This document shows positions 1,719 to 62,464 of a DNA stretch of 64,000 nt, piece after piece (the first letter of the stretch is position 1; each line of letters opens with the position of its first letter). The stretch lies in contig OY821517.1 in the NCBI GenBank assembly GCA_963682025.1, positions 102,650,412 to 102,714,411 of the forward strand, in the 5' to 3' direction. Under the pieces are notes generated by a model, which saw nothing but the letters and a program-made list of their open reading frames with translations, was not told the DNA's origin and did not search any database. The DNA is from Cordilura impudica. Its lineage: Eukaryota; Arthropoda; Insecta; Diptera; Scathophagidae. The position numbers and the translations under genes are program-made.

Positions 1719-1733
1719 AATTTTCTTTTACTT

Positions 1734-14563: not shown

Positions 14564-14725
14564 ACATTAGGAAATATAGTGTGATGGACAATGCGATGGA
14601 AACTGTTAGTAAAATATATTTTTGACGACTTAGACGGTCAATACCAAAAAATTTTATCATAAAATTAAAAACTCTTTAATTAGTTTAAATATATGTATGT
14701 TTTACTTATATAACAGAGAAGAAAA

Positions 14726-15473
14726 ACAAGTAAGAAAATTATAGTCGGTCTAGACCGACTATACGATACCCTATACCATGCGTTTAGAAACCCTATCTCT
14801 TAGGCCCAACTAACTGGACATAGAAAATAAGCAAAAAGCAAATTTGAGTGGGATTTTTATTAATTTTTTTGGCTGCAGATATGAAAAAGTTCATATCGGA
14901 TGCTATATCTATATGGGGACTAGGTCCAAAAATGGACTGATTCTGATCATGTTTGGTAAAGTCTCTTGTATTTTGCAAAAATATATACAAACAAAATTTG
15001 AGAAGAATCAGTGCAATATTTTTGTTTTTTAATAGATTTAAGTGAAAATCGGGAAGCAGCTCTATATGGGGCCACAGGGATAATTTTTGGACTACTCATT
15101 AATGGATGTAATGAACGCATATAAACCCAATTTGAGTAAGATCTATATGACAATTTGGATCTTATGACAATTTATGTCGATTTCATAGGGGTAATTTGTA
15201 TGGGGGCTAGGTCTGAATATGGACCGATTCTCACCAATAGCATTCATCCCATGGCCGATAAAAGCTTACATACCAAATTTCATCAAAATATATTCATATT
15301 TGCGACCTGCAGTTTGATTACAAGGTTTACATGGACACACAGACGGACCGACGAACGGACATTGTTAAATCAACTCAGAAAGTGATTCTGATTCGATCGG
15401 TATAATTAAAAATGGGTCTAGGTCAAATATTTTTGGTTGTTACAAACAGCAGCGCTGTTGGTATAGGGTATAA
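14726..15473 (+). repeat. INE-1/DINE-1-like repeat
   Basis: Very similar to the copy at 11957, with the 18-bp palindrome intact. The right end has lost the ATACCC/CCAC half of the terminal hairpin: CAGCAGCGCTGTTGGTATAGG replaces it. It abuts the jockey LINE that begins about 10 bp further on. Confidence 0.85.
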
Positions 15474-30813: not shown

Positions 30814-33733
30814 TGTAATGTTGAATTAGGGTAAAAATATTATGTAAAATTATCTGTTATTTGATTAAAAATTTTCTGACGTTAAACATTTCTTTTGGGT
30901 AAGCATAAGTATTTTTTTTCTAGTTTTAATTTTTGAAACAAAAATTGCATCTTTTCGTATCCACATTTTTTTTTTTTCTCTTTTTATTAAATAAAAATGC
31001 TCATGTTAAGCCAAGGAAGTTACTATTACCCGGCTTTAATATACAGTACATGGTTGGCGTCTCCGCTAAAACATATCTGACAATACCATTAATGATGTAC
31101 TTCAATACAAGCGTAGGAGATTATTATTCTATTGTTTTATTTTTTTTCTTATGTGGAAACTCCAAAAATTGAACCGAATCTAACCCTAGTTAGTCCCTAC
31201 TGGCAATAATATTGCTGTGTCTACAATATATTCCCAGAGTTGCAAATTTGTCGCCTATCAACGCATAGCAACGCACCGTTGCACTGTAAGCAACTCGATT
31301 ACTAAACTATCGACACTTGGTAGAGTTACTCAAATTTACTTAACGTTTGTCATTTCTAAGGTAATACAAAGAAATTCTTTCGCAACGTGGTTCCAACGAG
31401 GAAAGTCGTCTGGACAATTCATAAGAAATTCCAAAATTGTAAAACCAAATTCCCATTATTAACTACATAAATTAAACGTATACTCTAAAGCGTAAACTAA
31501 ATAAAGAGTTTTTGTGCGGAACTAAATATAATTTTAGCTTCCTTAATAATCCAATCGCAACTACCCAAGGTATATTGAATAATATAAAGTTATAGCAAAG
31601 TTTTGCAAAAAAAATCAATAAATTCCTTGGCAGGCTTTTATCCTCAAACGAGTGTTGCTTTACCCGTGATTATTTGGCTTAGCTTAACAATTTTTCCGTA
31701 CTTAACAATTCAAGAAGATCAAAAAAAAAAAAAAAAATCACCAACTGTACCAGTTTCCTTTTGTACTTGTCCTTCAACAGGTAAAATTTTTATAAAAAGG
31801 ATTTATTTTCTCCATAGAAAAATAACCACTCTTTTTTTATACAGAAACAAAATTATAACCTAAAATATTTCTCGTGGTGGACGCATATGAGCGCCACCAC
31901 TGCACGATTTATTACTCTGTTGGAAGTCTTAGATCATCTCGAAACAACCGCATATTCTTGGGTTTAATGATCATTAGCAAGATACCCATTTAATAGTGTC
32001 AACAAACTGCGGTTAACAATTTCAAAGCTAGGGCATATCACAGTGGGTTGTAGTAACTAATATATTAATCGCTTTATAGATTAATTGCACAAATTGAAAC
32101 CATATTCATTGAAAGACAACGACATCTGAGGACCCGTAATTTGGAGGTTACCAAGAAACATCAGCTTCCACGTAGCCCTACCTACATTGTCAGCGTCAGG
32201 CTTCGACAACCTTAACAAACCCTAGCAGTTGGAGTTAACTCAGGAAATTTCAAATAACCAAAAAAAAAAAAAAAAAAAAACGGAATAAGAAAAAACAAAA
32301 AAAGAATTAATAAGATTTTTTTTAAATAAGTGTAAAGTGGAAAAATAAGTCTTCATGTGTCTATATTTTAAATACCTATAAACACAAAATGAAGTCAAAA
32401 AAAAAAATATCAAAATTAGGACAATATAACATAAATAACTCAGCCAGTAAATTTTTTTTTTTAACACCCGCCACGTTATTTTTCCACTAGAACTTTCTGC
32501 TTATTTGAACATAATTTAACTAGTTTAAATTTTCGTAATATCCGTCAATAATTTTTTTTTTGTATATATATGGAAAACCCCATATAGCCACATTGTAAAT
32601 GCAAACAAAATCAGTATAATCCCCTTAACCCCTTTCTTGAAGCACAGTGCACCAGCAGTTTGACGAGGCCTCATCGATCAGCGGTTGCAGAGGGTTAATT
32701 CGGTGAGTCAAAAAAAAAAAAAAAAAAAAATATATATAAAAATATTTATATCTTGTATAATTGTTTTGTTTTGCATATTTCATTTGTAACTAAAAAGGTA
32801 TCAGAAGCAAGAATGAAGTAAAACCAATAACACTTAATGATCATCTGTGTAACATAGAGAACAAGTATTGTCTCTTTCAAATAAATCTCAATTTTTGTTG
32901 TTGCTGATTATTCTAAAATACTGGTTATGAGTTCTTGCTTCTAAATACCCTATATTACGTCGTAAGTTACATATTTAGGTTTGGTCATAATTCCTTTTTT
33001 TTTTGAATTATAATCAATCATTATAATCAATATGCGGTTGTTACGATGCGTTAAATTAAGCATTTACTAAAATAATTACGTTTATTTAGCGTGGGTTATC
33101 TTTCCATGGTAACTTTATAAATAATTCTACCTCACGCTTCATAAAAATTTTTTCATTGAATTATCCAAAATTATATATTTTAATTTTTAAACAATCTTTT
33201 TTGACTACACTAAAAAAAAAAAAAAAAAAAAAATTGTATTATTTGCAATTTAAATGAATAAACTTTGAACTCTAACAATGGAACTCTAAATTTCTTGCTG
33301 TGGTTTCTTACTTGATGTGAACTTAATGTGATAAACATTTAAATAAGGGATCTTAGTATTAATACTGGCGCGACTACAGATCATAGGTAGGGAGGGTTAC
33401 GAGCGCTTATCTCCAACGTCATTCTGGAGATAGAAATAAAAGCTATTTGGGGTTATAGACATATGTTACTGTTTGGTTGATTTAAATAGGGGTAATTAAA
33501 ATCTTTTAGATAAAAATCAACTGTAGGGAGTCTATAATAATTATTTATGTATATACGTTTTAATTTCGGTAAGAGAGATCTGAAAACAACAACCCCCCCA
33601 ACCGACTGACTGCTAGTGGTATTCAATGGCTCCCCTAAGTTTTTCACTTCTCTAAGAGCAGACATTTTCGCCGGATAGTCAATATCTATTTAAGAGTTTT
33701 TCCGAAACTCTAGATATTCAGTTGTTCATTACA
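30814..33733 (+). repeat. 5' LTR, 2920 bp
   Basis: Repeated at 39585-42504. The only differences I can find are T12 versus T13 near 30966/39737 and A21 versus A20 near 32710/41482, which cancel in length. It is unusually rich in homopolymer A/T runs (17-21 nt). It contains TATA-like sequence (TTTGTATATATATGG near 32561) and AATAAA signals (near 31500 and 33257), but the U3/R/U5 limits cannot be set by eye. ORFs of 70-86 codons in it are duplicated in the other LTR and lack family features. Confidence 0.95.
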
Positions 33734-33738
33734 TAAAT

Positions 33739-33756
33739 TGGCGCCCAACGTGGGGC
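33739..33756 (+). promoter_or_regulatory. Primer binding site for tRNA-Lys
   Basis: TGGCGCCCAACGTGGGGC begins five bases after the 5' LTR. It is complementary over 18 nt to the 3' end, including CCA, of tRNA-Lys(CTT) as I recall it. Minus-strand DNA synthesis would start here. Confidence 0.9.
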
Positions 33757-34484
33757 CGAAAGTCTCTAAAAACATTGCTGCAAAGTTAATGTTAATGGAT
33801 TTTCTCTGCTCTAAATTTAATTTGTAAATATCAGTAACATATCAAAGTTTAAATGTTATTCAATTCTGAGTAAATACAACCAATAAACATCAATCTTCTG
33901 TAGATTTTTCGGCTATTTGAGCTACTTCCATTCGAATAGGTCGACTCAGGAGCCCCTGATATTCTTTTGGTGGTGTGGACACGGAGTTGGGTAATACTTA
34001 GAATTTTATTGGATGTTGGTGAAATTTTTAGTTATTTTGTGTGAAATTTTTAACAGGCTATCGATATCCTGGTTTCATTTGGATTTACAATATAATTGCT
34101 AGTTGCGATTTATTGTCCAGTAAAATCAGTTCCAAGCGTATACAAATGAATATCGTTGTGTTAGATTCCAAATCGGGCTGCTAATTATGTCACTAATGTC
34201 TTAGATTAGATTTGTCACTACCATCAACCACATGAATTTTAAAGCTTTATAAAGTTTATCCATTTGTTAGCACATCAAAAAACGTAAGAAACCCAAACAT
34301 TAACATTTATATTTTTGCTCCCTTTTAATTATCTATTTGGGCTATTTCAGATCCAAAAATTGTTTTTTTCTTCTCCCTCTCTACTGCTCTTTTTTGGGCT
34401 TAGCAAGCCAAATTTAGTTATCATATAATCCCAATTGAAATATTGTTTAATTTTGTTTAGTAACAATTCATACAGTTTAATTTT

Positions 34485-36098
34485 ATGATCATGATGGGAC
34501 GCTCCCCTGAGAGAAACCAGGCGGCGGCCTTAATCATTTCACAGCCAGAATCAAGCTGTTTAATTTGTAAGGAGAAAATGTCGGAAGGACAAGAGTGCTT
34601 GCTCATTGCAGAATGTAATCATGCATTTCACCGCAGTTGCATAGAAACATCTATGTCTATTTCTTCCGAGTGTCCGTCTTGCAAAAGAATTTGTACTTTG
34701 TCTGAACTAAAAAAAATTACTATTCAAAACTCATATTCTGTTGTCGATAAATCAAAAACGGCTGCTCGAGGTAAACCTCGTGGTGCCCTATCAAAACAAT
34801 ATAACACTAGAAACTACACCAAAAATTTATTCCCGGAAGGTGCGCATACACCGTTGGTAGATTTCGGTGCAAATCTTCCGCTCGCAACAGAACCAGAGGA
34901 AGCAGCGGCTTCAACTCCCCTTCGAAACTGTCCCCCCACCAATTTTAATCGCTCCCCCCAAAATCGACCAAACCAAAAGAACAGTATGCCAGCCACTATT
35001 GACTATGAAAAAATTAACGACATGATTGAAGGATCCATATGCAGGTTGTTAGGAAATTTAAACTTAATCCCAAATTCTCAACGCCAACCACCACAACATC
35101 CTCCAACGGTTCAACCACTAAGTGATGCTATTAATCGCGATGTTAATAATCGTCCTGGTTCTGGGAGAAGTGACCCCAATAATTCTTCCCGTCCAAATTT
35201 TGAAAACGCGTCCGTGTTTGACGAAAGTTTCGCTATACGATCCACCAAGATAACTTCTATCATCCAGAACTGGAACATTAAGTTTGATGGTTCTGCTACT
35301 GGAATTTCGGTGGATGAATTTTTATATCGCGTAAGGTCATTAACCCGTGACAATTTTAATAATGATTTTACGTTAATTTGTAGAAATTTGCATGTCCTGT
35401 TGAGTGGTAAAGCCCGTGATTGGTACTGGGGATACCATAAGCAAGTTGAGGCAGTTACATGGAAAGAATTCTGTGAGGCCCTTAAATATCGCTACAAAGA
35501 CTTTAAATCAAGTTTTGATGTCCATGAGGAAATTAGAAATCGGAAAATGAAACCGACTGAATCTTTTGAAGTTTTTTATGATTCTATTTCTACTATGATA
35601 GATAGGTTAGACACACCCATTCCAGAAGCGGATTTAGTCGAAATTATCACCCGCAATTTGCGTCCAGAAATCAGGCATGAACTTCTGTTTGTTCCAATTT
35701 ATTCCATTGCCCACCTGAGAAAGTTAGTTCAAATGAGGGAAAATTTGTTAGGTGACGATTATTTCCGTAAAAATATATCCCCGAAAATTCCTCCAAACTA
35801 TGGGGTTCGTCGTCAAGTGGCAGAAGTTGAATATACGAAGAATAGCGAAAAAAGCGATTTCACTGCGATACAGGATGTTTCGGTCGATGCCATTCAACAA
35901 CCTTCTATTTCATACAAGTGTTGGAACTGCGATCAGGTAGGCCATCATTGGGAAGATTGTTTGGAGACCCGAATAATTTTCTGCTATGGGTGCGGCGAAA
36001 AAAATACCTATAAGCCCCAATGTGTCAAATGTTCTGCAAAAAAATTAATACATTCAAAAAACGGGAACCCTCCGAATGTCAGCCGGAACCGTCCATAA
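34485..36098 (+). CDS. gag: Gag polyprotein with N-terminal RING-H2 finger and C-terminal zinc knuckles
   Basis: 537 residues. Residues 25-66 form a complete RING-H2 (C3H2C3) finger: C25-x2-C28-x15-C44-x-H46-x2-H49-x2-C52-x10-C63-x2-C66. This is the fold of ubiquitin E3 ligases. Residues 80-240 are Pro/Asn/Ser-rich linker. About 258-425 is a retrotransposon capsid domain (WNIKFDGS, DWYWGYHK, ALKYRYKDF, LRPEIRHELLF). C479-x2-C482-x4-H487-x4-C492 is a canonical CCHC knuckle. A second knuckle at C500-x2-C503-x4-T508-x4-C513 has Thr in place of His, though C516 follows. The first ATG is used; Met3 or Met4 would also keep the finger. Its 3' end overlaps pol by 79 nt. Gag should assemble the particle and package RNA. 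A ligase role for the RING part is inference. It is open with no disruption. Confidence 0.93.
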   Translation: MIMMGRSPERNQAAALIISQPESSCLICKEKMSEGQECLLIAECNHAFHRSCIETSMSISSECPSCKRICTLSELKKITIQNSYSVVDKSKTAARGKPRGALSKQYNTRNYTKNLFPEGAHTPLVDFGANLPLATEPEEAAASTPLRNCPPTNFNRSPQNRPNQKNSMPATIDYEKINDMIEGSICRLLGNLNLIPNSQRQPPQHPPTVQPLSDAINRDVNNRPGSGRSDPNNSSRPNFENASVFDESFAIRSTKITSIIQNWNIKFDGSATGISVDEFLYRVRSLTRDNFNNDFTLICRNLHVLLSGKARDWYWGYHKQVEAVTWKEFCEALKYRYKDFKSSFDVHEEIRNRKMKPTESFEVFYDSISTMIDRLDTPIPEADLVEIITRNLRPEIRHELLFVPIYSIAHLRKLVQMRENLLGDDYFRKNISPKIPPNYGVRRQVAEVEYTKNSEKSDFTAIQDVSVDAIQQPSISYKCWNCDQVGHHWEDCLETRIIFCYGCGEKNTYKPQCVKCSAKKLIHSKNGNPPNVSRNRP

Positions 36099-39000
36099 TA
36101 ACTTCTTCAAAAAAAATTGAAAACGTAGATGTAGAACCTTATAACTGTTTAGAATTAGATGATAATATAACCATATTGAAACGTATAGAGTCTGCTAAAG
36201 AATTTTATTATAATAATGTTAAATTACAACCAATTTTACCTTATCACACAAAAATGGAAAACTACTTAGCAAAACGTAAGGCAATTTTTGAAGTTTCTGC
36301 ATTGTCTGTTAACCCAAAGGGTAGAAAACCAAAACGATCGTCGATTCGTTTGCGGCAATATTATAGAAACCGGAAACACACTGCAAAATTTGTAATATCT
36401 TCTATTGTAAATAAGTCGTCAGATCGGCGATACTATGCTGCGGTAAAGTTTTTAAATTTTAATGAACTGGGTCTTTTGGATACAGGTGCTAATGTATCAT
36501 GCATAGGCTCTGATTTAGCCAACAATGATTTTTCTAAATTTAAAGAATTTATGCAGATGAAATCGTATGTAAAGACAGCAGATGGTAATTTCCAGCGAGT
36601 TTTAGGGTATTTGCAGGTGGATTTAGTTTTCAAAGAGCAAGTTAGGAAAATGAAAATACTGATTGTACCAACAATTACCCAGCGTCTGATATTGAGGTTA
36701 AATTTTTGGAAGAACTTTAATTTAGCGCCGGAGGTGTTTGGAAACTTTGTTGTTTCATCCGGCTTTGAAACTTCGTTAAGTATTTTGTCCGAGTTGTCCT
36801 CTTTTAGTACGCCGTTTAAAGTTGCGTCTGAAATTAATGAAGAAGTGGTACCTTCGCCATCCTGCATAGATTATCCCTTAACTAATAGCCAACGACAACA
36901 ACTTGCAGCTATTGTGGACTTATTTCCGAACTTCGAAAAGCAGGGTTTGGGACGAACGGGCTTGATCAAGCATATGATTGACGTAGGTGAGGCCACTCCA
37001 ATCAAACAGCGTTTTTACCCCGTTTCTCCAGCAGTGGAAAAAGTGATGTTTGAAGAAATCGACCGAATGTTGGCTTTGGGAGTCATTGAACCCTCAAATT
37101 CTGCTTGGAGCTCTCCCATGCGCTTAGTCGTAAAACCAAACAAGGTCCGTCTTTGCCTTGACGCACGAAAAGTCAATCAGGTGACAAAAAAGGATGCCTA
37201 CCCGTTACCAAATATCGAAGGAATCTTATCACGACTTCCAAAGGCCAACATTATATCAAAATTGGATCTCAAAGATGCATATTGGCAAATAGGCTTAACC
37301 GACGAGGCGAAAGCGTTCACCGCTTTCACGGTTCCGGGTAGACCTTTGTATCAATTCGTTGTCATGCCCTTTGGACTATGTAATGCCCCTTCTACCATGT
37401 GCCGCCTTATGGATACCCTTATACCGCCGGACCTACGCCAATGTGTATTTGGCTATTTAGATGATCTAATTATAGTTTCCGAAAATTTTTCATCCCATTT
37501 GTCCATGTTAGTTCGGATCGCTGAACAATTTAAACACGCGAATCTGACCCTTAACATATCGAAATCAAAGTTTTGCGTTACTGATGTAAATTATCTGGGA
37601 TATATAATAGGGAACGGTGGTATAAAAATGGATCCAGAAAAAATTGATTCCATCTTGAATTGGCCGGTGCCGAAGAATATTAAACAGGTTCGGGGTTTTT
37701 TAGGAATAGCCGGATGGTACCGACGATTCATCGCCAATTTCTCCACAATAGTTTTTCCTATATCCGAAGTTTTATCCACTAAACGGAAGTTTTGTTGGAC
37801 CACCGAAGCTCAAAAATCTTTTGAGAGAATAAAGATCCTACTGACTTCTGCTCCTGTGCTTTCAAACCCTGACTTTAGCAAGAAATTTTACCTACACTGC
37901 GATGCTAGTGACTTTGGCATTGGTGCTGTTTTGGTGCAGTTCGACGAAAATGGTAACGAACGACCAATCGCCTTTATGTCGAAAAAGTTAAATACTGCCC
38001 AACGCAACTATAGTGTCACGGAACGCGAATGTTTGGCTGCGCTAGAGGCTATTAAAAAATTCCGGTGTTATCTTGAAATGCAGGAGTTCGAAGTTATAAC
38101 CGACCATTCGTCGTTAGTATGGCTAATGAAACAGCCAGATTTGACAGGTCGTTTGGCTCGATGGGTATTCAAGCTTCAAGGCTATAAATTCTCGGTTAGT
38201 CACAGGAAGGGAAAAGATAATGTGGTACCAGATGCTTTATCTAGAATCCCTGGCGATGATTTGGCGGGAATAGAAGTTCTTGAACCCGAAATAGACCTGA
38301 ATTCACCGCATTTTAATGATGAAGATTATTCAAGTCTGAGAGCGAGAATTAATGGGAATATTTCCAAATATCCGGATCTGAAAATTATTGACAATTATGT
38401 CTACATTAGAACAAATTATTATTCAGGCGACATACTACAGGAAAATGCGTGTTGGAAGCTCTGGATTCCACGCAATTTACGAAAAAACGTAATTTCAAGA
38501 TCGCACAATGCACCAGTTGCCACGCACGGAGGCCTAATTAAAACGTTAGAACTTATTCGTCGCAATTTCTATTGGCCAGGTCTAGTCCGGGACGTGAGGG
38601 AATATATTAAAAATTGCGAAATCTGCAAAACCACCAAGGCTCCGAATTTTATTATGAAGCCCGAAATGGGTAGGCCTGCGGTAACAAACAGACCTTTTCA
38701 ACGATTATATATCGATATTTTGGGACCATATCCTCGCAGTAAACAGGGTTATATAGGGTTGCTTATTGTTTTGGACCATATGACAAAATTCCACTGGCTT
38801 TTCCCACTAAAAAAATTTACATCCAGTACAATTCAAGATTTTCTACTTAAACAAATTTTCCACATATATGGTGTGCCCGAGATCCTAGTAAGTGACAATG
38901 GGTCACAATTTAAAGCGCATGAATTCAACGCTTTTCTTACCTCTTTAGGTATAACACACATCTACACGGCCATCTATTCTCCTCAAGCTAATGCTGCAGA

Positions 39001-39529
39001 GAGAGTAAATAGATCGATTATAGCTGGTATCCGATCTTATCTTAAAAGTGACCAGACTTTATGGGATCAAAATCTCACTTCAATTAGTTGTGCATTGAGA
39101 AATTCTTTTCATCAAGCCATAAAATGTTCCCCATATCATGCCGTTTTTGGTTTTGACATGATTACACATGGCAGCTCTTATGCCCTTCTAAAAAACCTCA
39201 ATCTGGTTGACGAACCATCAATTACCCTCCACAGAGATGATGAACTCCAATTATTACGTAAAAATTTGAAAAGGAATATTGCACAAGCCTATGAAAATAA
39301 CAGAAATCAGTATAACCTTAGAACGCGACCTATATCCTATTCCATAGGTCAATCCGTATTCCGCAGAAACTTTGCACAAAGTAGTTCTGAAAAAAAATTT
39401 AATGCGAAATTTGCACCAATGTTTATAAAATCTAAAATTAGAGAAAAAATCGGAAACCACTACTATGTATTAGAGGATATGGAAGGTAAAATATTGGGAA
39501 CTTATCATGCGAAAGATATTCGCCCGTGA
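36020..39529 (+). CDS. pol: Pol polyprotein: protease, reverse transcriptase, RNase H, integrase
   Basis: The -1 frame relative to gag, open for 1169 codons; expressed by frameshifting, so the ATG at 36020 is probably not used. Protease: LLDTGANVS with catalytic D154. Reverse transcriptase: LDLKDAYWQI (D416) and the YLDD box at 479-482, where most gypsy elements have YVDD or YIDD. RNase H starts at D628 (HCDASDFGIGAVL) and includes TERECLAALEAI and TDHSSLVWL. Integrase zinc finger is H829-x6-H836-x29-C866-x2-C869. The integrase core carries D899 (YIDILGP), D959 (SDNGSQF) and E994 (NAAERVN), with 34 residues between the last two. All catalytic residues are present and there is no stop. A short C-terminal tail after about residue 1120 has no chromodomain that I can recognise. 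The product copies genomic RNA to DNA and inserts it. Confidence 0.95.
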   Translation: MCQMFCKKINTFKKREPSECQPEPSIITSSKKIENVDVEPYNCLELDDNITILKRIESAKEFYYNNVKLQPILPYHTKMENYLAKRKAIFEVSALSVNPKGRKPKRSSIRLRQYYRNRKHTAKFVISSIVNKSSDRRYYAAVKFLNFNELGLLDTGANVSCIGSDLANNDFSKFKEFMQMKSYVKTADGNFQRVLGYLQVDLVFKEQVRKMKILIVPTITQRLILRLNFWKNFNLAPEVFGNFVVSSGFETSLSILSELSSFSTPFKVASEINEEVVPSPSCIDYPLTNSQRQQLAAIVDLFPNFEKQGLGRTGLIKHMIDVGEATPIKQRFYPVSPAVEKVMFEEIDRMLALGVIEPSNSAWSSPMRLVVKPNKVRLCLDARKVNQVTKKDAYPLPNIEGILSRLPKANIISKLDLKDAYWQIGLTDEAKAFTAFTVPGRPLYQFVVMPFGLCNAPSTMCRLMDTLIPPDLRQCVFGYLDDLIIVSENFSSHLSMLVRIAEQFKHANLTLNISKSKFCVTDVNYLGYIIGNGGIKMDPEKIDSILNWPVPKNIKQVRGFLGIAGWYRRFIANFSTIVFPISEVLSTKRKFCWTTEAQKSFERIKILLTSAPVLSNPDFSKKFYLHCDASDFGIGAVLVQFDENGNERPIAFMSKKLNTAQRNYSVTERECLAALEAIKKFRCYLEMQEFEVITDHSSLVWLMKQPDLTGRLARWVFKLQGYKFSVSHRKGKDNVVPDALSRIPGDDLAGIEVLEPEIDLNSPHFNDEDYSSLRARINGNISKYPDLKIIDNYVYIRTNYYSGDILQENACWKLWIPRNLRKNVISRSHNAPVATHGGLIKTLELIRRNFYWPGLVRDVREYIKNCEICKTTKAPNFIMKPEMGRPAVTNRPFQRLYIDILGPYPRSKQGYIGLLIVLDHMTKFHWLFPLKKFTSSTIQDFLLKQIFHIYGVPEILVSDNGSQFKAHEFNAFLTSLGITHIYTAIYSPQANAAERVNRSIIAGIRSYLKSDQTLWDQNLTSISCALRNSFHQAIKCSPYHAVFGFDMITHGSSYALLKNLNLVDEPSITLHRDDELQLLRKNLKRNIAQAYENNRNQYNLRTRPISYSIGQSVFRRNFAQSSSEKKFNAKFAPMFIKSKIREKIGNHYYVLEDMEGKILGTYHAKDIRP
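36038..36062 (+). promoter_or_regulatory. Gag-Pol -1 ribosomal frameshift site
   Basis: In the gag frame the codons read GCA AAA AAA and, six codons on, TCA AAA AAC, giving two slippery heptamers: A AAA AAA at 36038-36044 and A AAA AAC at 36056-36062. The second is a classic highly efficient site. Pol lies in the -1 frame and is open from upstream of both sites. I see only a weak TCCG..CGGA stem downstream; any pseudoknot needs folding. Confidence 0.8.
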
Positions 39530-39584
39530 ATTTCTTACTGATTCCTCCTTATACTATTGCCTAACAGGCTAGTATTATGCGGTT
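39530..39584 (+). other. Gap between pol and 3' LTR without a recognisable polypurine tract
   Basis: The 55 bases before the 3' LTR end CTAGTATTATGCGGTT. The longest purine run in them is four bases, whereas plus-strand priming of LTR elements normally needs a run of about ten purines directly upstream of the LTR. Confidence 0.8.
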
Positions 39585-42504
39585 TGTAATGTTGAATTAG
39601 GGTAAAAATATTATGTAAAATTATCTGTTATTTGATTAAAAATTTTCTGACGTTAAACATTTCTTTTGGGTAAGCATAAGTATTTTTTTTCTAGTTTTAA
39701 TTTTTGAAACAAAAATTGCATCTTTTCGTATCCACATTTTTTTTTTTTTCTCTTTTTATTAAATAAAAATGCTCATGTTAAGCCAAGGAAGTTACTATTA
39801 CCCGGCTTTAATATACAGTACATGGTTGGCGTCTCCGCTAAAACATATCTGACAATACCATTAATGATGTACTTCAATACAAGCGTAGGAGATTATTATT
39901 CTATTGTTTTATTTTTTTTCTTATGTGGAAACTCCAAAAATTGAACCGAATCTAACCCTAGTTAGTCCCTACTGGCAATAATATTGCTGTGTCTACAATA
40001 TATTCCCAGAGTTGCAAATTTGTCGCCTATCAACGCATAGCAACGCACCGTTGCACTGTAAGCAACTCGATTACTAAACTATCGACACTTGGTAGAGTTA
40101 CTCAAATTTACTTAACGTTTGTCATTTCTAAGGTAATACAAAGAAATTCTTTCGCAACGTGGTTCCAACGAGGAAAGTCGTCTGGACAATTCATAAGAAA
40201 TTCCAAAATTGTAAAACCAAATTCCCATTATTAACTACATAAATTAAACGTATACTCTAAAGCGTAAACTAAATAAAGAGTTTTTGTGCGGAACTAAATA
40301 TAATTTTAGCTTCCTTAATAATCCAATCGCAACTACCCAAGGTATATTGAATAATATAAAGTTATAGCAAAGTTTTGCAAAAAAAATCAATAAATTCCTT
40401 GGCAGGCTTTTATCCTCAAACGAGTGTTGCTTTACCCGTGATTATTTGGCTTAGCTTAACAATTTTTCCGTACTTAACAATTCAAGAAGATCAAAAAAAA
40501 AAAAAAAAATCACCAACTGTACCAGTTTCCTTTTGTACTTGTCCTTCAACAGGTAAAATTTTTATAAAAAGGATTTATTTTCTCCATAGAAAAATAACCA
40601 CTCTTTTTTTATACAGAAACAAAATTATAACCTAAAATATTTCTCGTGGTGGACGCATATGAGCGCCACCACTGCACGATTTATTACTCTGTTGGAAGTC
40701 TTAGATCATCTCGAAACAACCGCATATTCTTGGGTTTAATGATCATTAGCAAGATACCCATTTAATAGTGTCAACAAACTGCGGTTAACAATTTCAAAGC
40801 TAGGGCATATCACAGTGGGTTGTAGTAACTAATATATTAATCGCTTTATAGATTAATTGCACAAATTGAAACCATATTCATTGAAAGACAACGACATCTG
40901 AGGACCCGTAATTTGGAGGTTACCAAGAAACATCAGCTTCCACGTAGCCCTACCTACATTGTCAGCGTCAGGCTTCGACAACCTTAACAAACCCTAGCAG
41001 TTGGAGTTAACTCAGGAAATTTCAAATAACCAAAAAAAAAAAAAAAAAAAAACGGAATAAGAAAAAACAAAAAAAGAATTAATAAGATTTTTTTTAAATA
41101 AGTGTAAAGTGGAAAAATAAGTCTTCATGTGTCTATATTTTAAATACCTATAAACACAAAATGAAGTCAAAAAAAAAAATATCAAAATTAGGACAATATA
41201 ACATAAATAACTCAGCCAGTAAATTTTTTTTTTTAACACCCGCCACGTTATTTTTCCACTAGAACTTTCTGCTTATTTGAACATAATTTAACTAGTTTAA
41301 ATTTTCGTAATATCCGTCAATAATTTTTTTTTTGTATATATATGGAAAACCCCATATAGCCACATTGTAAATGCAAACAAAATCAGTATAATCCCCTTAA
41401 CCCCTTTCTTGAAGCACAGTGCACCAGCAGTTTGACGAGGCCTCATCGATCAGCGGTTGCAGAGGGTTAATTCGGTGAGTCAAAAAAAAAAAAAAAAAAA
41501 ATATATATAAAAATATTTATATCTTGTATAATTGTTTTGTTTTGCATATTTCATTTGTAACTAAAAAGGTATCAGAAGCAAGAATGAAGTAAAACCAATA
41601 ACACTTAATGATCATCTGTGTAACATAGAGAACAAGTATTGTCTCTTTCAAATAAATCTCAATTTTTGTTGTTGCTGATTATTCTAAAATACTGGTTATG
41701 AGTTCTTGCTTCTAAATACCCTATATTACGTCGTAAGTTACATATTTAGGTTTGGTCATAATTCCTTTTTTTTTTGAATTATAATCAATCATTATAATCA
41801 ATATGCGGTTGTTACGATGCGTTAAATTAAGCATTTACTAAAATAATTACGTTTATTTAGCGTGGGTTATCTTTCCATGGTAACTTTATAAATAATTCTA
41901 CCTCACGCTTCATAAAAATTTTTTCATTGAATTATCCAAAATTATATATTTTAATTTTTAAACAATCTTTTTTGACTACACTAAAAAAAAAAAAAAAAAA
42001 AAAATTGTATTATTTGCAATTTAAATGAATAAACTTTGAACTCTAACAATGGAACTCTAAATTTCTTGCTGTGGTTTCTTACTTGATGTGAACTTAATGT
42101 GATAAACATTTAAATAAGGGATCTTAGTATTAATACTGGCGCGACTACAGATCATAGGTAGGGAGGGTTACGAGCGCTTATCTCCAACGTCATTCTGGAG
42201 ATAGAAATAAAAGCTATTTGGGGTTATAGACATATGTTACTGTTTGGTTGATTTAAATAGGGGTAATTAAAATCTTTTAGATAAAAATCAACTGTAGGGA
42301 GTCTATAATAATTATTTATGTATATACGTTTTAATTTCGGTAAGAGAGATCTGAAAACAACAACCCCCCCAACCGACTGACTGCTAGTGGTATTCAATGG
42401 CTCCCCTAAGTTTTTCACTTCTCTAAGAGCAGACATTTTCGCCGGATAGTCAATATCTATTTAAGAGTTTTTCCGAAACTCTAGATATTCAGTTGTTCAT
42501 TACA
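39585..42504 (+). repeat. 3' LTR, 2920 bp
   Basis: Copy of 30814-33733 with the same TGTAATG...CATTACA ends; see the 5' LTR for the two length differences. It is followed directly by the ATAA duplication. Confidence 0.95.
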
Positions 42505-54049: not shown

Positions 54050-54054
54050 CGGCG

Positions 54055-54093
54055 CACAGTGGACCATTTGACGAGAAGGCAGTCAAAAATATA
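54055..54093 (+). promoter_or_regulatory. Transib 2 left end: heptamer, 23-bp spacer, A-rich nonamer-like block
   Basis: CACAGTG (54055-54061), a 23-bp spacer (54062-54084), then AAAAATATA (54085-54093). The vertebrate V(D)J signal is CACAGTG, 12 or 23 bp, ACAAAAACC. The heptamer and spacer length agree exactly; the nonamer only in its A-run. Confidence 0.8.
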
Positions 54094-54675
54094 TAACAAT
54101 TGATTGGATTGGAATTTTGATATGCGTTTTTATTTGTTTGGTAGGTGAGACTTTAGTCTTTAAGTTTTGCTATAAAACGTAATTCTCGACCGAAAATAAA
54201 AAAAGTTACGGAGGGTTTAAAATACATTTTCATTTGTAGTTTAATTTTAGTACAAAAGTGAAGTTTTAAAAGTTAAAAAAAGGTTTTTTTTTTTAATATA
54301 ATGTCTTATTTTTTCAGTTAATTTTACAACTAATAATTCTTAACAATTTTTTAAGTAAGTTTTTTCAGAAAATGCCAAACTTTGGCCCCCGTAAACTTTT
54401 TAGTCCTAATGTGCGCAATGGCCAAAGGTTTTTTTTTTTAAAGATCCCGAGTTAAAATATAATTTATTAAGCAGCGAACGTAAAAGTTACCTTATACTAG
54501 TTCAATATAGAGAAGTTTCAATAAAAAACTCGTATGATTTTGCTTTAGTTAAACTTTTTTTTATTGTCTTTTTAAATATTTCTATATCAATTTTTATGGT
54601 AAATTTATGAAATATAACAATTTTTATTGTAAATTTACAAAATATATCAATTTTTAAATAAAGAAAATTTTTTAG

Positions 54676-56256
54676 CTATATAAAAAAAGTGTAACTTATT
54701 GTTAGTGTAACGAAAATGTACTTTAAATCAACAATTTTAGTAAAAATTTCTACTAAATAGCCTTGATTTTCAACTTCTAGAAGTTGTTTAGCTTCTTCGT
54801 CTAATTCAATAGAGGTAGTTTTCCATTTTTGACGAACGTTGGACATATATGAATCTGAAGTGCACAACAAAATAGTGATAAGGTCTTCATTAGTACAACA
54901 TCTGGACATTTTCCTTGTGTTGTGCTCGCGAAAGAATCTGTAGTCTTTGTTCCTTTTTTCTTGCGCTTCTTTAGATAGATCTCCTATTGGTAGCATATTG
55001 TTTTGAATTACTTGTTCCCCATGGTACAAAATTTTATGATTTGGATGGAATATATATCCAAGAGTATTTTTCATTATAAAGTATAGCTGTTTTATTGGCA
55101 TACTCTCCAAATTTTTTTGCATTTATCTTTCTGCTGCATGCTAAAACTTGTAATATGATTTTGAATCGTCTTATTAATTCATGATCTACACCTGTGATAG
55201 ATGCTGCAGTTTCCGGATCGGAAAAAAATATCCTTGCAGTATTTCCATCATTTGTGTTTCCTTCCCCTTGTTGTGGTTGGTCGATTACGACTCCTAGCTG
55301 TAGACATTTTTGTTAAATTTGTTTTTTTTGCTTTCTTTTTTCTTCATTTCTTCAAATTCCAAATCATAACCCAATTTAAGGATATGCTCCATGAAACGTA
55401 TTCTAGCATGAAGAGGGGACATTCCAAATTCGTAGGCTTCCTTAAAACTATCGTCTTCTGGTGGGGGTTGGCTAAATTGACTTGATGTCTTTTGGCATAT
55501 AATGCAGCTTGACGTTGAATTTGTTCCAGTTAAAGCTTGTGCAACTTTTCCATCAATCATTGTGAGACACATTTTAAAATGTACTTCAATGTCTTGGTCA
55601 TCAAATATAAAAATTACGGTTTGAAGTTCCTTAAACTGATCTTTTATTTTTTGAAATTCCTCAGTTATGGCATCTTTGGTTTCCTTTTTGAGTGCAAATT
55701 TTATTGGTCTGCAATACTTTGTTGAAGAAGGAATTTCATTTTTCCATATAGCAATTTCTGTTGCTCTACTAGTTGACGGCTCTAAGACGCTATAACTTTT
55801 TGTTAAGCGCAATGGAACTAAATATACCATAAATAAATTAGCATCTGATGAATTCTCGGCATCAAATTGCTTGTATTGTTTCTGACCAGAGGATCCATCA
55901 CATTCCCATTTAGAAATTAAAGTAATGCTGGCATTACCAATTTTTTTTAAATGATCAATATCAATCGTATTTAGCAATCGTTCTGCAGTATGTTCAAGGA
56001 GATCTTGCAATTTTATTTCTGCTGATGTTAAAGGTTCACTAGTAGCAGGTTGTAAAGGTAAGCATTCTTTTTTGGCAGAAACTAAATCTCGATACTCTGG
56101 AAAAATCCCACAATTCTTTTCATTGGTTCGCTTCCGCAATTCCTTATATTGATTTTTGGTCAATTTCAGATCCAAAAATAGGGCGAACGCTTCTTCCGGC
56201 ATAAATTTCTTATCTTCAATTGGTATAGGAATGCTTTTCAAAATCTTCTTTTGCAC
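54676..56256 (-). pseudogene. Transib 2 (RAG1-related) transposase, frameshifted
   Basis: Frame 56256-55294 (320 residues) carries the first two active-site acids: D120 in WECDGSSGQKQYKQ and D235 in LTMIDGKVAQALTG, followed 16 residues later by the zinc pair CIICQ. It continues through SPLHARIRFMEHILKLGY. Frame 55122-54676 carries the C-terminal part: YHGEQVIQNNMLPIGDLSKE, then the Glu of QEKRNKD (54958-54960). The D-D-E order and the CxxC between match RAG1 D600, D708 (19 residues before C727) and E962 by my alignment from memory. The piece between (55294-55123) still encodes TNDGNTAR- and INAKKFGE-like motifs in shifted frames, so only a few frameshifts separate it from an open gene. An INE-1-like repeat lies upstream at 56571. 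It is inactive as it stands. Confidence 0.88.
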
Positions 56257-56570
56257 CTTGGGCTCGCTTCTACTTCTACTTTTTGCAATTATTTCAATTT
56301 AATTTTTTTTATTTTGGGTTGGTTGAATTTGGTGCGAAAATGAATCCTTAACAATTCTTTGAGAAATTTCTTCATTGATATTCTCCAGCTTGCGCCTTCA
56401 AGATCTTTCACTACATCCGTCAATTGGTTTTGTTCGTCGACCCTTTTTTCCAATTTCGTTGGCAAAAATAAGTTCCTTTATTAACCAGTCTTGGTAACGT
56501 TTGTACAGCTTTGCCTTGCTATGAGAGCATTCAATGTACCGTCTTTTCGAATTCGATGCAAAATTAGTAA

Positions 56571-57379
56571 TTATACCCTATACCACTATGTGGTTTGGGT
56601 ATAATGACTTTGTGCTGCTGTTTGTAACAACCAAAAATATTTGACCAACACCCATCTTTAATTATACCGATCGAATCAGAATCACTATCTGATTCGATTT
56701 AACGATGTCCGTCCGTCCGTCCGTCCGTCCGTCCGTCTGTGTGTCCATGTAAAGCTTGTAATCAAACTGCAGGTCGCAATTATGAATATATTTTGGAGAA
56801 ATTTGGAATTTGATCTTCTATCGGCCATGGGATGAACGCTATTGAAATTGGTGAGAATCGGTCTATGTTCAGACCTAGCCCCCATACAAATGACCCCTAT
56901 GAAATCAACATATATTGCCATAAGATCCAAATTATCATACAAATCTTAGTCAAATTGGGTTTGTATGTATATATTACATCCATTAATCAGTAGTCCAAAA
57001 ATAATCCCTATTGGACAACTCTTAGTCATAGTCCCCATATAGAGCTGCTTCCCGATCTTCACTTAAATCTATCAAAAAATAAAAATATTGCACTGATTCT
57101 TCTCAAATTTTGTTTGTATATATTTTTGCAAAATACAAGAGACCTTACCAAACATGGTCAGGATCGGTCCATTTTTGGGCCTAGTCCCCATATAGATATA
57201 GCATCCGATATGAACTTTTTCATATCTGCGGACAAAAAAATTTATAAAAATTCCACTCAAATTTGGTTTATGCTTATTTTCTATATCCAGTTAGTTGGGT
57301 CTGAGAGATAGGGTCTCTAAACGCATGGTATAGGGTATCATATAGTCGGTCTACACCGACTATTATTTTCTTACTTGTT
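56571..57379 (-). repeat. INE-1/DINE-1-like repeat inside Transib 2
   Basis: Reverse copy from TTATACCCTATACCACTATG to TTTTCTTACTTGT. It has an expanded (GTCC) tract of six units at 56709-56737, the longest in the window. The right palindrome reads AGTCGGTCTACACCGACT, one mismatch from perfect. It inserted after the Transib. Confidence 0.85.
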
Positions 57380-57889
57380 TTTCCTTTGTGCATTTCAATG
57401 TCTTCTAAGTTACAATTCTTAAAGAAGTCGTTGCTCACTATGTGCAAAATTACATCGTCTACATCATTTCGTTGAAAATAAATATCTGCCAGATCTCTGT
57501 AACAGTACTTAGCCATTGCACAAATTGTAATGAATAATAATTGTGGAAACACTATTATAAGTACTCTCTCTTGTAATTATGTAAAATAAAAAATTTTATC
57601 TTTTATTACCACTTTTAGAAGCATAAAAAACCCACACCTTAACGCCTTTTAAAAGGTGAAGCATACCTGCTCATATCTTAAAGTGCTATGTCGCAATAGT
57701 TTTTTTTACCATTTACCACTTAATTAAATTGTTTCCCATTTTGTCAGGTATTTAAAGTATATAACTCTAATTCAGACTATTAATGTTTTTGAAAGATAGC
57801 TATGTAAATGTACCTGTAACAATTAAGCGCATTATATCTCAACCCTTTTTTATAAGTGTACAACAACTCTTGACAACTCTATCGACATG

Positions 57890-58080
57890 AAAAAAAATAC
57901 ACCGCGATGCACCGGTACGACCAACTTTTGTATTCATAACACTCAGACGGACGGACGGACATCGTTTAGTCGACTCAGAAAGTGTTTTTGAGTCGATCCG
58001 TATAATAAAAGATGGATAAAGGTCCAATATTTTTGGCAGTTACAAACATCACCTCAAACTTAATATATCCTAACCACAAG
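57890..58080 (+). repeat. INE-1-like repeat, 3' fragment inside Transib 2
   Basis: CAGACGGACGGACGGACATCG, split about the tract at 57947-57963, then CGACTCAGAAAGTGTTTTTGA and GTATAATAAAAGATGG, and a worn CCTAACCACAAGTGG end. Only the right quarter of the element remains. Confidence 0.65.
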
Positions 58081-58602
58081 TGGACAACATTTGTATTCAT
58101 AAATTTTGCAGAAAATATCTAATTGTTCTGGTGAACACGGGCGGAAACTGGCGGGTATATAATGGGGTATAGTAGTGTAGGGGAGGGTTCGTACTATAGA
58201 AGAGTGCAAGATTTTTTCTGACTGCTTTTGACTGGCAGGAGTTATGCTCTATTAAGTAGGAGATTTTCGAAAAATTTGGACCTTTCTTAAAATTTTTTTT
58301 TTTTTAATTCCGGAATGACTCAGTGATTTTACGTTTTTAACATTAATAGTATGGAAGCCACAAAATTATACAAAATTTATTTCACTTCAAAATCTTTTAA
58401 ATCCAAAAAGTGACAGTCATACAAAATAAAAATTTACAAAGAAATTTTTAATTTTAACAAAATACTGAGAAAGCCCATTTTCGAAGACCCTGTTCGCTGT
58501 GATATAGTTGAGACAGAGTCGCAATTTTTTGGCTCATGAGGTTTATTAGTATTTGCTTTCAAATGAATAACATAACTTTAAAATCGGCAACAAAAAAAAA
58601 AA

Positions 58603-58641
58603 ATGATTTTTGGCCGCCTTCTAAAAATATGGTCCACTGTG
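58603..58641 (-). promoter_or_regulatory. Transib 2 right end: heptamer, 23-bp spacer, A-rich block
   Basis: On the reverse strand: CACAGTG (58641-58635), 23-bp spacer, AAAAATCAT (58611-58603). The spacer shares GACCAT and AGAAGGC with the left end at the same distances, so the geometry is conserved between the two ends. Confidence 0.8.
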
Positions 58642-58646
58642 CGGCG

Positions 58647-60450
58647 GTCGAAATGGATTTCGAGATATTTGACATTTATACGTTGTGGTATATCGTGGTT
58701 ATTAATCTGTACTGGTGGGCATGTTTCGCTTCTTAGGGTGAAAGTGATACGAATGCATTTTCGTTCATTAGCTTTGACTTTCCATCTCTCCAGCCAATTT
58801 TGTAAATCCTAAGTGTGGGTTTGTAAAAATCTAGATGCTATTGATGGGTTTTCATGACCAACTAAGATTGCCATGTCATCAGCAAAAGTCGAGGTGCGGG
58901 TGTTTACATGTGTTGGTAAATGAGATATGTAGAGTACATATAATAATGGCGCCAGAATACTCACCTGTGAGACTCCGGCTTGTATATCTTGTGGTGAACT
59001 TATATGGTTATTTTCCTTTACTGTGAACTTACGACCTGTTATATAGCTTTCTTGGAGCTTATGAGTGTTGGGTGGTAGCACCTGTTTAATTTTATAGATC
59101 AAACCATCATGCCAAACTTGTGACACATCAATAAAAAGAGCAGAGCCATATCGTTTTTCACCAAAAGTGTTTCTTATAACTGTGACCAGCCTGTGAACTT
59201 GCTCAATGGTGCTGTGTTTTCCCTGAATCCGAACTGATGATCTGGTACAAAGTTAATTTGATTTACAGCTAGGGTTAGTTTATTCATTAGCAGTCTTTAG
59301 AAAAGTATTGAAATATTCGATAAAATACTTATTGGCCTATATGACTCGACTCTAGTGTTATCTTTGCCTGGATTGGGTATCATTTTTATGAGTGATACTT
59401 TCCATTCTAGGGAATAATATTAAAGGCATATAATAGCATAAAAAATATAAAGAATTATTCTTAAAGCTATTTTGGGTAGTTCTATTAGCATCTTATTACT
59501 GAGCTTGTCGATCCCTGGTGCTTTGTTTGAGTTTAAATCAGTTATAGCCTTTTTGACTTCTCGTACCTCTAACCTGAGTGGATTATTTTCTCTTTGCTGA
59601 GGCGTTACTGGAAACAGCTCCACTATGGAGCTTGATGTGTTTGGTGGGAAAACATTCCTCCAGTGCTCCACGAACAGTTCAACTTTTTCAGAGACACTTC
59701 TTGCCCAATCTCCATTTGATTTGCGCAAAGGAGGCTTTATCATGATGGGTCTTTTAATATTTTTTGTTACACGCCATAATAGGTAATCGGAGCTCGGTTT
59801 GTTATCAAGGCTCTTAAGGAAATTATTTAAAGATTCGATTCTCTGGGTCTCCAATAGGGATACGAACCCTAACACATTCTTTTAACACATTCTTTTAATC
59901 GCATCTAAAGTTGTGGGGATCTGTGCTCTCCTTTAAAATAAAAGTTTTCAACATGTGCTGAAGGAACATTATACTGTAGGAACTTGAATGGCGAGTTTGA
60001 GATTTAATTCAAAATTTTTGATTGAAAGGTCAATATTTTCTGGAGTTCTGAGCTGTAAGTTCTCTAAGAAATGTGTATTGATAATCTTTTTGTATTTTAA
60101 CCAATTTGTTGTTTTACTTGTCACCGCGAAGTCACCGATGTGTTTTACAATTTTTTTTTAGGCTTTAAAAAAGTAACAATTATAGGTGTGAGATCTGAAG
60201 AGAGTTCTAATGATGGTTCGACATGAACTAGGTGTCTAGATAGATATAGACTTTGTCACTCCGAAATATATTAGTTCCGGTATTTTGTACCTATCTGATG
60301 GCCAATAAGTGGGTTCTACGCTTGAGATCACATCCAAATTCATTTTAGAAGTTGTATTATACAATACACTATGTTTAGGGGTAACTAGTGAAGACCCCCC
60401 AGAATTTATGCCTTATAGTCACCAGCAGCTAAAAAGTGTGTGCCTAATGA
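58647..60450 (-). pseudogene. Jockey LINE 2 endonuclease end and reverse transcriptase, decayed
   Basis: Near 60330-60400 the reverse strand reads MNLDVISSVEPTYWPSDRYK, the end of a jockey endonuclease. Frame 59420-59875 (151 residues) is the region before and at the start of the RT (LEVREVKKAITDLNSNKAPG, the typical ...SNKAPGxDxL motif). Frame 58809-59126 has the RT palm with DGLIYKIKQVLPP, GRKFTVKENN and the intact catalytic box FADDMAIL. The GVPQGSVLGP motif is altered to GVSQVSILAP. The stretch between the two frames has shifts and stops. The thumb part continues to 58647 and, beyond the Transib, at 54049. It is older than its insertions and inactive. Confidence 0.85.
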
Positions 60451-61222
60451 TTATACCCTATACCACTATGTGGTTTGGGTATAATGACTTTGTGCTGCTG
60501 TTTATAACAACCAAAAATATTTGACCCAGACCCATCTTTAATTATACCGATCGAATCAGAATCACTTTTTGAGTTGATTTAACAATATCCGTCCGTCCGT
60601 CTGTGTGTCCATGTAAACCTTGTAATCAAACTGCAGGTCGCAAATATGAACATATTTTGATGAAATTTTGTATATAAGCTTTCGTCGGCCATGGGATGAA
60701 CGCTATTGAAATAGGTGAAATTCGGTCCATGTTCAGACCTAGCCCCCATACAAATTACCCCTATGAAATCGACATAAATTGCCATAAGATCCAAATTGTC
60801 ATATAGATCTTACTCAAATTGGGTTTGTATGCGTTCATTACATCCATTAATGAGTAGTCCAAAAATGATCCCTTTGGCCCCATACAGAGCTACTTCCCGA
60901 TATTCACTTAAATCTATTAAAATACAAAAATATTGCACTGATTCTTCTCAAATTTTGTTTGTATATGTTTTTGCAAAATACAAGAGACGTTACCAACCAT
61001 GGTCAGGATCGGTCCATTTTTGGACCTAGTCCCCACATAGATATAGCGTCCGATATGAACTTTTTCATATCTGCAGCCAAAAAAATTAATAAAAATCCCA
61101 CTCAAATTTGGTTTTTGCTTATTTTCTATGTCCAGTTAGTTGGGCCTAAGAGATAGGGTTTCCAAACGTATGGTATAGGGTATCGTATAGTCGGTCTAGA
61201 CCGACTATAATTTTCTTACTTG
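60451..61222 (-). repeat. INE-1/DINE-1-like repeat, near-complete copy
   Basis: Reverse copy with both end structures: TTATACCCTATACCACTATG-TGGTTTGGGTATAA at the left and the perfect palindrome AGTCGGTCTAGACCGACT before ATAATTTTCTTACTTGT at the right. It cuts the 5' part of jockey LINE 2. Confidence 0.87.
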
Positions 61223-62464
61223 TTTTTTATTTAGCGAATGTATTTCGATGATTTTTTTTTTTTCATTAAGATACTTCTTTATTTCTGAATCTTATCTAGC
61301 AACAAAGTAGTGAAAATGAAACAATTTAAAACGGTAAATTTCTCTAACTCCCAAAGAGTGAAATACTTAGAAATAGTTAAAATTTTGTTTTAGCTAAGTG
61401 ACTTTTCTCGGTTATAACAAAAAAAATTTGTTTTTTTTTTTTTTGGATTTATATATAATGGGTCGGGGTGAAACCTTGATACAAGAATTGATTGAATTTT
61501 TGCATTTCAGCTAAAAGTTATTCTAACCACCCAAATCAGAACAAAATTGGTCAGCAATTATCAGAATGATCTACAAAATTATGGAAATGCTAAAAACAAA
61601 ATGCGAGCACAGTTCAAATGTTGAATTCTGCTGCATCTATATAAAAGAGATAAATTTCAACTTCTGCTCATATTTGCGTAGTAAAAAGAGTGGTTTAGGG
61701 TTGTTTATATCTTAAATCGAGGAAACTTGACATTTATGACCCTCGCTACATTGGATTACTTCCTGTCTTATTTAAATTTAAAGAAAGAATGGCGTAGGGT
61801 AATATTTTAAGACAAAAAACAAAAAACAAATAAAAAATAAACGAAATGTAACTTGGATTGACCTGATGGTCTTCAATATATCTTTCATGATTTGAGAAAA
61901 TCTGAGCGACTTTTATCGCATCGTTATTGGGCTGATGGTACCATAATGGTGTGAACTGTAATTTCATTTCGTATCGCCATACATAAAGTTAATTTTGGAA
62001 AAATATCTAATAGTCAAAGATGGACTTCTCAACAAGGCAAAGCGTACATCTTTATAGCTGGATATATAAGACAGTGGATTTGTGACAATATCATGAAATT
62101 TCTGGAGTGACCTCTTTTACTCCTGACCTATGCATAATTGTAAAATTGTGAGGATGCGTTTAATTTATGGAGAAGATAATCCAATTTAAAAAAGAACATG
62201 GTTGGTTAAATCTATTCAAGATGCTTTTGAGCAAATAACAATAAATGATGAACAAAATCTGTACAGATCTCTTCTAAACAGACTTGGAGTTGTTTGCAAT
62301 AATGAAGGACCAAAAAAGTTACTAATTAACATTAAAATATATTTTAAAAAATTGAGAATTTTTTTAATTTTACTTTTTCTAGAATGTTGCGCGGAAGCTG
62401 AAGGTGAAATTCGAGCGGCTTAATATATAACAAATTTTGTATACATCAATTTGAGCAGCTGCCT
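61223..62464. other. No identifiable gene
   Basis: A+T-rich; the 73-codon frame at 62202-62423 has no recognisable motif. Nothing supportable. Confidence 0.45.

What the first reader, a model, noticed from the sequence alone, without database searches (positions are those of the whole stretch)
54055..58646. Transib element whose two ends are 23-RSS-like, with an exact CACAGTG heptamer
Both ends read CACAGTG, 23 bp, then an A-rich block (AAAAATATA and AAAAATCAT), flanked by the duplication CGGCG, and the element carries a RAG1-related transposase. Transib is the accepted relative of the RAG1/RSS system, but its usual start is CACWATG. An exact vertebrate heptamer with matching 23-bp geometry at both ends is notable. 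Heptamer, spacer lengths and duplication are read directly; kinship with RSS is established for the superfamily; the nonamer match is only in the A-run.
Basis: partly seen in the sequence, partly recalled or inferred. Interest (0 to 1): 0.85.

Follow-up and report, generated by a model that had tools for sequence, protein, structure and literature searches.

The report
High-copy fly Transib with CACAGTG ends
This is a decayed copy of an abundant jumping gene (a Transib, the known relative of the enzyme that assembles our antibody genes); its ends really do carry the vertebrate CACAGTG signal, but RSS-like ends are already described for Transibs and the match to the full vertebrate signal is weaker than it looks.

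Summary
Both ends of 54055-58641 read CACAGTG, 23 bp, A-rich block, between CGGCG duplications. The interior is a broken Transib transposase. Genome-wide, 1955 exact CACAGTG left ends stand against 19 CACAATG.

Two papers already say some Transib ends equal RSS heptamers and nonamers. In the vertebrate nonamer register the spacer is 21, not 23 (7 of 9 matches against 4), within the described symmetric 20-22 bp class. Both ends are alike, so there is no 12/23 pair. A sister family in the same genome, with 677-aa open frames, ends in CACTGTG and CACAGTG; another Transib in the window ends in CACTATG. Positions 4-5 thus drift, and exact CACAGTG looks like a modest coincidence (inference). New member of a known kind.

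The parts
54050..54054 (.). left 5-bp target site duplication CGGCG
54055..54091 (+). left terminal inverted repeat (heptamer 54055-54061, A-run 54085-54089)
   Evidence: family majority
54727..55038 (-). transposase remnant, C-terminal part with the third catalytic acidic position (E)
   Evidence: tblastn of P0004; HzTransib match and weak RAG1 match of the ORF 54676-55122
55058..55303 (-). transposase remnant, middle piece, in a different frame from its neighbours
   Evidence: tblastn of P0004 and, in part, P0012
55360..56571 (-). transposase remnant, main piece with the first two catalytic D positions and two in-frame stops
56571..57383 (.). unrelated ~815-bp repeat inserted into the transposase gene (same family as copies at 912-1723, 3258-3996, 11949-12735, 14722-15453, 60450-61227)
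57388..57516 (-). transposase remnant, N-terminus (starts MAK..., 53% identical to P0001 over 43 residues)
57939..58083 (.). fragment of the same ~815-bp repeat, opposite orientation
58605..58641 (-). right terminal inverted repeat (heptamer 58635-58641, A-run 58607-58611)
   Evidence: family majority
58642..58646 (.). right 5-bp target site duplication CGGCG

Best explanation
A dead copy of a cut-and-paste Transib transposon, one of a family with about two thousand left ends in a 1.49-Gb genome (probably a fly, inferred from named relatives such as Stomoxys). The transposase, a RAG1-like DDE enzyme, would have bound the 37-bp inverted repeat at each end: the outer CACAGTGGACCAT block at the cleavage site and the inner GAGAAGGCGGYCAAAAATC block further in. 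It would cut at the 5' side of CAC, leave hairpins on the flanks, and insert into CGNCG sites with 5-bp duplication. The two ends are symmetric. Shown here: ends, duplications, target preference, family majority, transposase kinship. Inferred from HzTransib and RAG: the chemistry, and which protein parts touch which block.
Against: No copy of the window's own family with a full open frame was seen: in 18 copies the longest ORF was 321 aa, so the family may have been moved by the sister's enzyme. Sampling was biased towards copies most like the window copy. In 1 of 18 copies (L045) the right A-block is missing, and 4 of 18 duplications are imperfect. No cleavage was tested.
Confidence: 0.93

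Rival explanations
1. The ends are genuine 23-RSS equivalents: the exact heptamer and 23-bp geometry reflect a special closeness to the vertebrate RAG/RSS system, and vertebrate RAG1/2 would use them as 23-RSSs.
For: The heptamer equals the RSS consensus CACAGTG (PMC8289069 passage) and is fixed in the family. The N-terminus of these transposases has a GRP motif that a profile aligns with the start of the RAG1 nonamer-binding domain, in a region that the HzTransib structures do not cover. HzTransib protein with mouse RAG2 is reported to act on mouse 12/23 RSS (PMC8355894 section 6).
Against: The nonamer fits at spacer 21 (7 of 9), not 23 (4 of 9); a score of 7 or more somewhere in 28 offsets arises in 8.5% of random stretches, and the two ends are not independent. 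The spacer itself is largely shared between the two ends (18 of 23 positions, from the majority letters), unlike RSS spacers, which PMC8355894 calls highly variable (section 6). The sister family has CACTGTG at one end (808 exact). The profile of relatives matches HzTransib at E 1.3e-123 and RAG1 at best 8.5e-8.
Confidence: 0.06
2. A variant of the best explanation: the family is non-autonomous now, its own decayed gene is irrelevant, and its ends are mobilised by the sister family's enzyme, whose ends they resemble.
For: No intact frame in 18 copies; sister copies with open frames exist; both families share CACWGTGG, GAGANNGCGGYCAAAA and CGNCG targets.
Against: All 18 copies are long (2.3-5.3 kb) and still carry transposase matches, and ten copies of 3.66-4.19 kb are alike along their whole length (medians per 200 columns 96.7-99.0% to their majority), as expected of a family that had its own enzyme. 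Only 18 of about 2000 copies were examined for frames.
Confidence: 0.35
3. Chance: a CACAATG-type Transib in which one copy mutated to CACAGTG.
For: The window copy is the most diverged of 30 (95.96% to the majority).
Against: 1955 CACAGTG against 19 CACAATG left ends genome-wide, out of 2262 inner 19-mers counted without the heptamer.
Confidence: 0.01

Closest known systems
HzTransib (Helicoverpa zea; PDB 6pqn, 6pqx and related)
   Different: The transposases here have about 150 more N-terminal residues with a GRP motif than the solved HzTransib chains. HzTransib's own end sequence was not read in any call.
Subgroup II Transibs as defined in PMC9435367 (passages)
   Same: An N-terminal region with GRP, reported there for both subgroups; subgroup II includes most earlier Transibs and has both symmetric and asymmetric TIRs. 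The transposase here is nearest, among solved structures, to HzTransib.
   Different: Subgroup assignment was not tested by its own markers (alpha11-alpha12 region, CTT type).
Vertebrate RAG1/RAG2 and the 23-RSS
   Same: Heptamer CACAGTG, A-rich element about two helical turns in, GC-rich 5-bp target duplication (PMC11844651 passage), related DDE core.
   Different: No 12/23 asymmetry, nonamer best at 21 not 23, spacer largely shared between ends, transposase much closer to HzTransib; no RAG2-like ORF of 200 aa or more in the element.
Drosophila melanogaster transib1-4
   Same: Dipteran Transibs with TIRs of 40-45 bp (PMC10299278 table passage).
   Different: 3-27 annotated copies each in D. 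melanogaster; 1955 exact left ends here.

Membership tests
Transib superfamily | RAG1-like DDE transposase related to known Transib transposases | tested here: met
   HzTransib is the best solved match; 26 database relatives align
Transib superfamily | 5-bp, GC-rich target site duplication | tested here: met
   CGGCG in the window; identical in 14 of 18 other copies; CGNCG preference
Transib superfamily | terminal inverted repeats starting CAC | tested here: met
   28 of 30 left and 36 of 39 right ends are exact CACAGTG
Autonomous (working) Transib copy | one open frame holding all three catalytic acidic positions | tested here: not met
   the window gene is broken; the letters sit in separate pieces. 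The copy is therefore not filed as autonomous. Met in sister copies L090-L092
Vertebrate 23-RSS | heptamer CACAGTG | tested here: met
Vertebrate 23-RSS | nonamer ACAAAAACC at 23 bp | tested here: not met
   4 of 9 at 23 bp; best 7 of 9 at 21 bp, both ends
Vertebrate 12/23 RSS pair | one end with a 12-bp and one with a 23-bp spacer | tested here: not met
   both ends have the same geometry; 3 of 9 at 12 bp
Vertebrate 23-RSS | cleavage by RAG1/2 with a 12-RSS partner | not testable with these tools
   needs a bench assay
RAGL transposon (RAG1L + RAG2L) | a RAG2-like gene beside the RAG1-like gene | tested here: inconclusive
   no ORF of 200 aa or more in the element other than the transposase piece; no RAG2 search was run
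RAG1-type nonamer-binding domain in the N-terminus | GGRPR-type motif followed by helices that bind the A-rich element | tested here: inconclusive
   profile aligns the GRP region with the RAG1 NBD start, but that stretch alone has i-Evalue 6.9; six RAG1 rows align from model residue 96-124 to RAG1 392-410, at rmsd 8.9-13.1; model residues 87-97 have pLDDT under 50

The most novel reading that the evidence does not exclude
Insect Transibs exist in which a nonamer-binding-type N-terminal domain and an RSS-like end (exact heptamer plus A-block two turns in) occur together and are under joint constraint, so that this enzyme reads a bipartite signal the way RAG1 does. The two sister families, one with CACAGTG at both ends and one with fixed CACTGTG/CACAGTG, would be a natural test of what heptamer positions 4-5 do.
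Probability: 0.15. Interest if true: 0.6.

Novelty: new member of a known kind. Interest (0 to 1): 0.3.

Why it matters
Modestly. It gives a large set of little-diverged Transib ends with the exact vertebrate heptamer, a strong CGNCG target preference, and a sister family with open frames whose two heptamers differ at position 4. That makes end-recognition by RAG-family enzymes testable with natural variants. It does not change the accepted picture that RAG1 and the RSS come from Transib-like transposons.

Tried and rejected
Rejected: one-copy chance mutation to CACAGTG. Rejected: a 12-bp register (3 of 9). Pfam gave no match above its curated cut-off for the window pieces; the C-terminal piece had a sub-threshold RAG1 match (PF12940, E 0.011), and database relatives gave nothing above cut-off either. 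Relatives are listed with PF26100 in the protein database; that this Pfam copy lacks that model is my inference. Rfam: no match in the window. No relatives in viral or prokaryote contigs. Kapitonov and Jurka 2005 is not held, so its end alignments were not read. The tree places the window copy with P0001, P0002 and P0003 (supports 100/98, 100/98, 100/99); the second Transib of the window has a long, unsure branch. The Foldseek list agrees. Two scripts stopped with an error after part of their output; one search was redone, and only the table printed before the error is used. Not obtained: copies of the second window Transib, the count of CACAGTG at the sister's 5' end, the genome-wide count of the family's right end.

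Literature searches; one search for 'Transib' with 'CACAGTG' listed three papers, of which I read passages of one. Passages were read of PMC8355894 (also section 6), PMC7204232, PMC1852546, PMC6941560, PMC11844651, PMC8289069, PMC4411706, PMC2686171, PMC10299278, PMC9435367, PMC13056857. All other papers were seen as search listing only.
Full report
What is there. The element runs from 54055 to 58641, between copies of CGGCG at 54050-54054 and 58642-58646. Its ends are CACAGTG GACCATTTGACGAGAAGGCAGTC AAAAATATA and CACAGTG GACCATATTTTTAGAAGGCGGCC AAAAATCAT. CACAGTG-N23-AAAAAT occurs in the 64-kb window only at these two places and in none of 100 shuffles. The gene lies on the minus strand: N-terminus at 57388-57516, main part at 55360-56571, then 55058-55303 in another frame, then 54727-55038. 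The ORF of the main part matches the HzTransib structure 6pqn with E 3.4e-44 and the last ORF with E 3.4e-18; the last one also matches RAG1 weakly. The gene is dead: two in-frame stops in the main piece, a change of frame around the next piece, and a repeat of about 815 bp inserted near its 5' part, other copies of which lie elsewhere in the window.

Is CACAGTG the family's end? The genome holding the window has 1.486 Gb in 855 contigs. A 301-bp left-end query gave 948 candidates, of which 40 were scored and 30 cut out as loci, the window copy among them. This sample favours copies like the window copy. Of the 30, 28 read CACAGTG, one CATAGTG and one CCCAGTG; position 5 is G in 30 of 30 and the distance to the A-block is 23 in 30 of 30. 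Right ends were sampled separately: 614 candidates, 40 scored, and the 39 besides the window copy fetched. Of these 39, 36 read CACAGTG (others CAGAGTG, CACAGTA, CGCAGTG), position 5 is G in 39 of 39, and the distance is 23 in 39 of 39. Without conditioning on similarity, the exact left 26-mer CACAGTGGACCATTTGACGAGAAGGC occurs 1955 times (read backwards 0), the same with CACAATG 19 times, and the inner 19-mer alone 2262 times. A genome-wide count of the right end was not obtained.

Anatomy of the family. Of 20 fetched copies, 18 have both ends within 6 kb and two (L040, L044) do not. The 18 span 2280-5265 bp. Their right heptamer is CACAGTG in 17 (L042 CACACTG), and in one (L045) the right A-block is gone. 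Reading the listing, 14 of 18 have identical 5-bp duplications, three differ at one base and one at two. The flanking five bases fit CGNCG strongly: left C28 G24 N C27 G27 of 30, right C36 G35 N C36 G34 of 39. Left ends (about 545 bp each) are a median 98.5% like their majority, and the window copy is the most diverged at 95.96%. Ten copies of 3.66-4.19 kb show medians of 96.7-99.0% to their majority in bins of 200 columns along the element (table printed before the script stopped). All 18 copies carry transposase matches, but no ORF above 321 aa was found in them. The two majority ends agree at 32 of the first 37 positions, in two blocks, 1-13 and 19-37, apart from position 29.

How RSS-like is it? 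The heptamer is exactly the RSS consensus given in PMC8289069 (passage). The rest is less so. Slid along the family majority, the RSS nonamer ACAAAAACC scores 7 of 9 at a spacer of 21 at both ends, 4 of 9 at 23 and 3 of 9 at 12 (spacers 8-28). A best score of 7 or more over spacers 8-35 occurs in 8.5% of random stretches of this AT-rich window. So the 23-bp figure depends on starting the nonamer at the first A. PMC8355894 describes Transib ends with symmetric 20-22 bp spacers as one class and ends with 12 or 23 +/- 1 bp asymmetry as another, and says of the latter that some heptamers and nonamers are identical to canonical RSSs (passages and section 6). PMC6941560 says that some Transib elements have heptamers and nonamers identical to those recognised by RAG, with spacers of various lengths (passage). 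PMC8289069 says most Transib families have symmetric TIRs, such as Hztransib's, which resemble the RSS heptamer but hardly the nonamer (passage). The finding fits the symmetric class. Whether a symmetric family with CACAGTG at both ends is already in print I could not establish, because the primary paper is not held.

A sister family in the same genome. The best database relative of the transposase, P0001, is 78% identical by BLASTP over 93% of the main ORF and falls beside it in the tree (100/98). Searched in the window's genome it gave 88 scored places at 94-96% identity (of 31531 loose candidates); six of the 88 rows have an open frame of 625 aa or more without stops (read from the table). 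Four copies were fetched. Three have ORFs of 677, 677 and 652 aa, with the DDE acidic residues at 276, 391 and 601; the fourth has 487 aa. The ends are CACTGTG GTCAATATTTTGAGATAGCGGCC AAAACTCCT upstream of the gene (heptamer in 3 of 4; L092 CTCTGTG; L091 differs at one spacer base) and CACAGTG GTCAATTTCGCGAGATAGCGGTC AAAACTCTA downstream (4 of 4), with perfect CGNCG duplications in 4 of 4. Genome-wide the exact 26-mers number 808 for the CACTGTG end and 775 for the CACAGTG end; the count of CACAGTG at the upstream end was not obtained. The difference at position 4 between the two ends thus looks fixed. A third Transib, at 19799-22731 in the window itself, ends in CGCTGTG and CACTATG with duplication CAATG; only this one copy was seen. 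What stays is CAC..TG; positions 4 and 5 drift between A/T and G/A. Given that it is a Transib, hitting CACAGTG exactly is then a modest coincidence. This last step is inference from few families.

Mechanism, with status. Shown: ends, duplications, target preference, family size, kinship of the enzyme. Inferred from HzTransib and RAG (PMC6941560 passage): nicking at CAC, hairpin on the flank, cut-and-paste. Inferred only: the outer block is read by the core and the inner A-block by the N-terminal domain.

Verdict. The claim of an unusually close 23-RSS match is weakened. This is a new, abundant member of a known kind.

Noticed in passing
window 19799-22731: A second, different Transib on the + strand: transposase matches 20868-22178 (broken), ends CGCTGTG and CACTATG, duplication CAATG on both sides; 36% identity at best to the rows of the tree. 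Its family could not be counted.
   Followed up: partly
window 30814-42504: What looks like a young LTR retrotransposon: two 2.9-kb direct repeats 99.93% identical, with open frames of 537 and 1169 aa between them; gag- and pol-like by eye only. Only described.
   Followed up: no
window 912-1723, 3258-3996, 11949-12735, 13935-14571, 14722-15453, 56571-57383, 60450-61227 and fragments: A repeat of about 800 bp with GTCC runs and a TATACCCTATACCA...CTTGTTTT outline, seven long copies in 64 kb; one sits inside the Transib gene. No clear duplication was read; class not settled.
   Followed up: partly
L093:1123-1140; G000:C1 near 22370022 and 8664293: Ends of the window family and of the sister family lie head to head exactly 5 bp apart: in L093 the five bases are CGACG; two more cases come from comparing the first listed places, letters between them not read. 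Each insertion duplicates its CGNCG target, which may draw the next Transib in. Not counted genome-wide.
   Followed up: partly
genome G000: Exact ends number 1955 (window family, left) and 808/775 (sister family). PMC4411706 (passage) gives one or at most a few copies for autonomous Transibs; how many copies here are autonomous is not known beyond six open frames of 625 aa or more in 88 scored sister places.
   Followed up: partly
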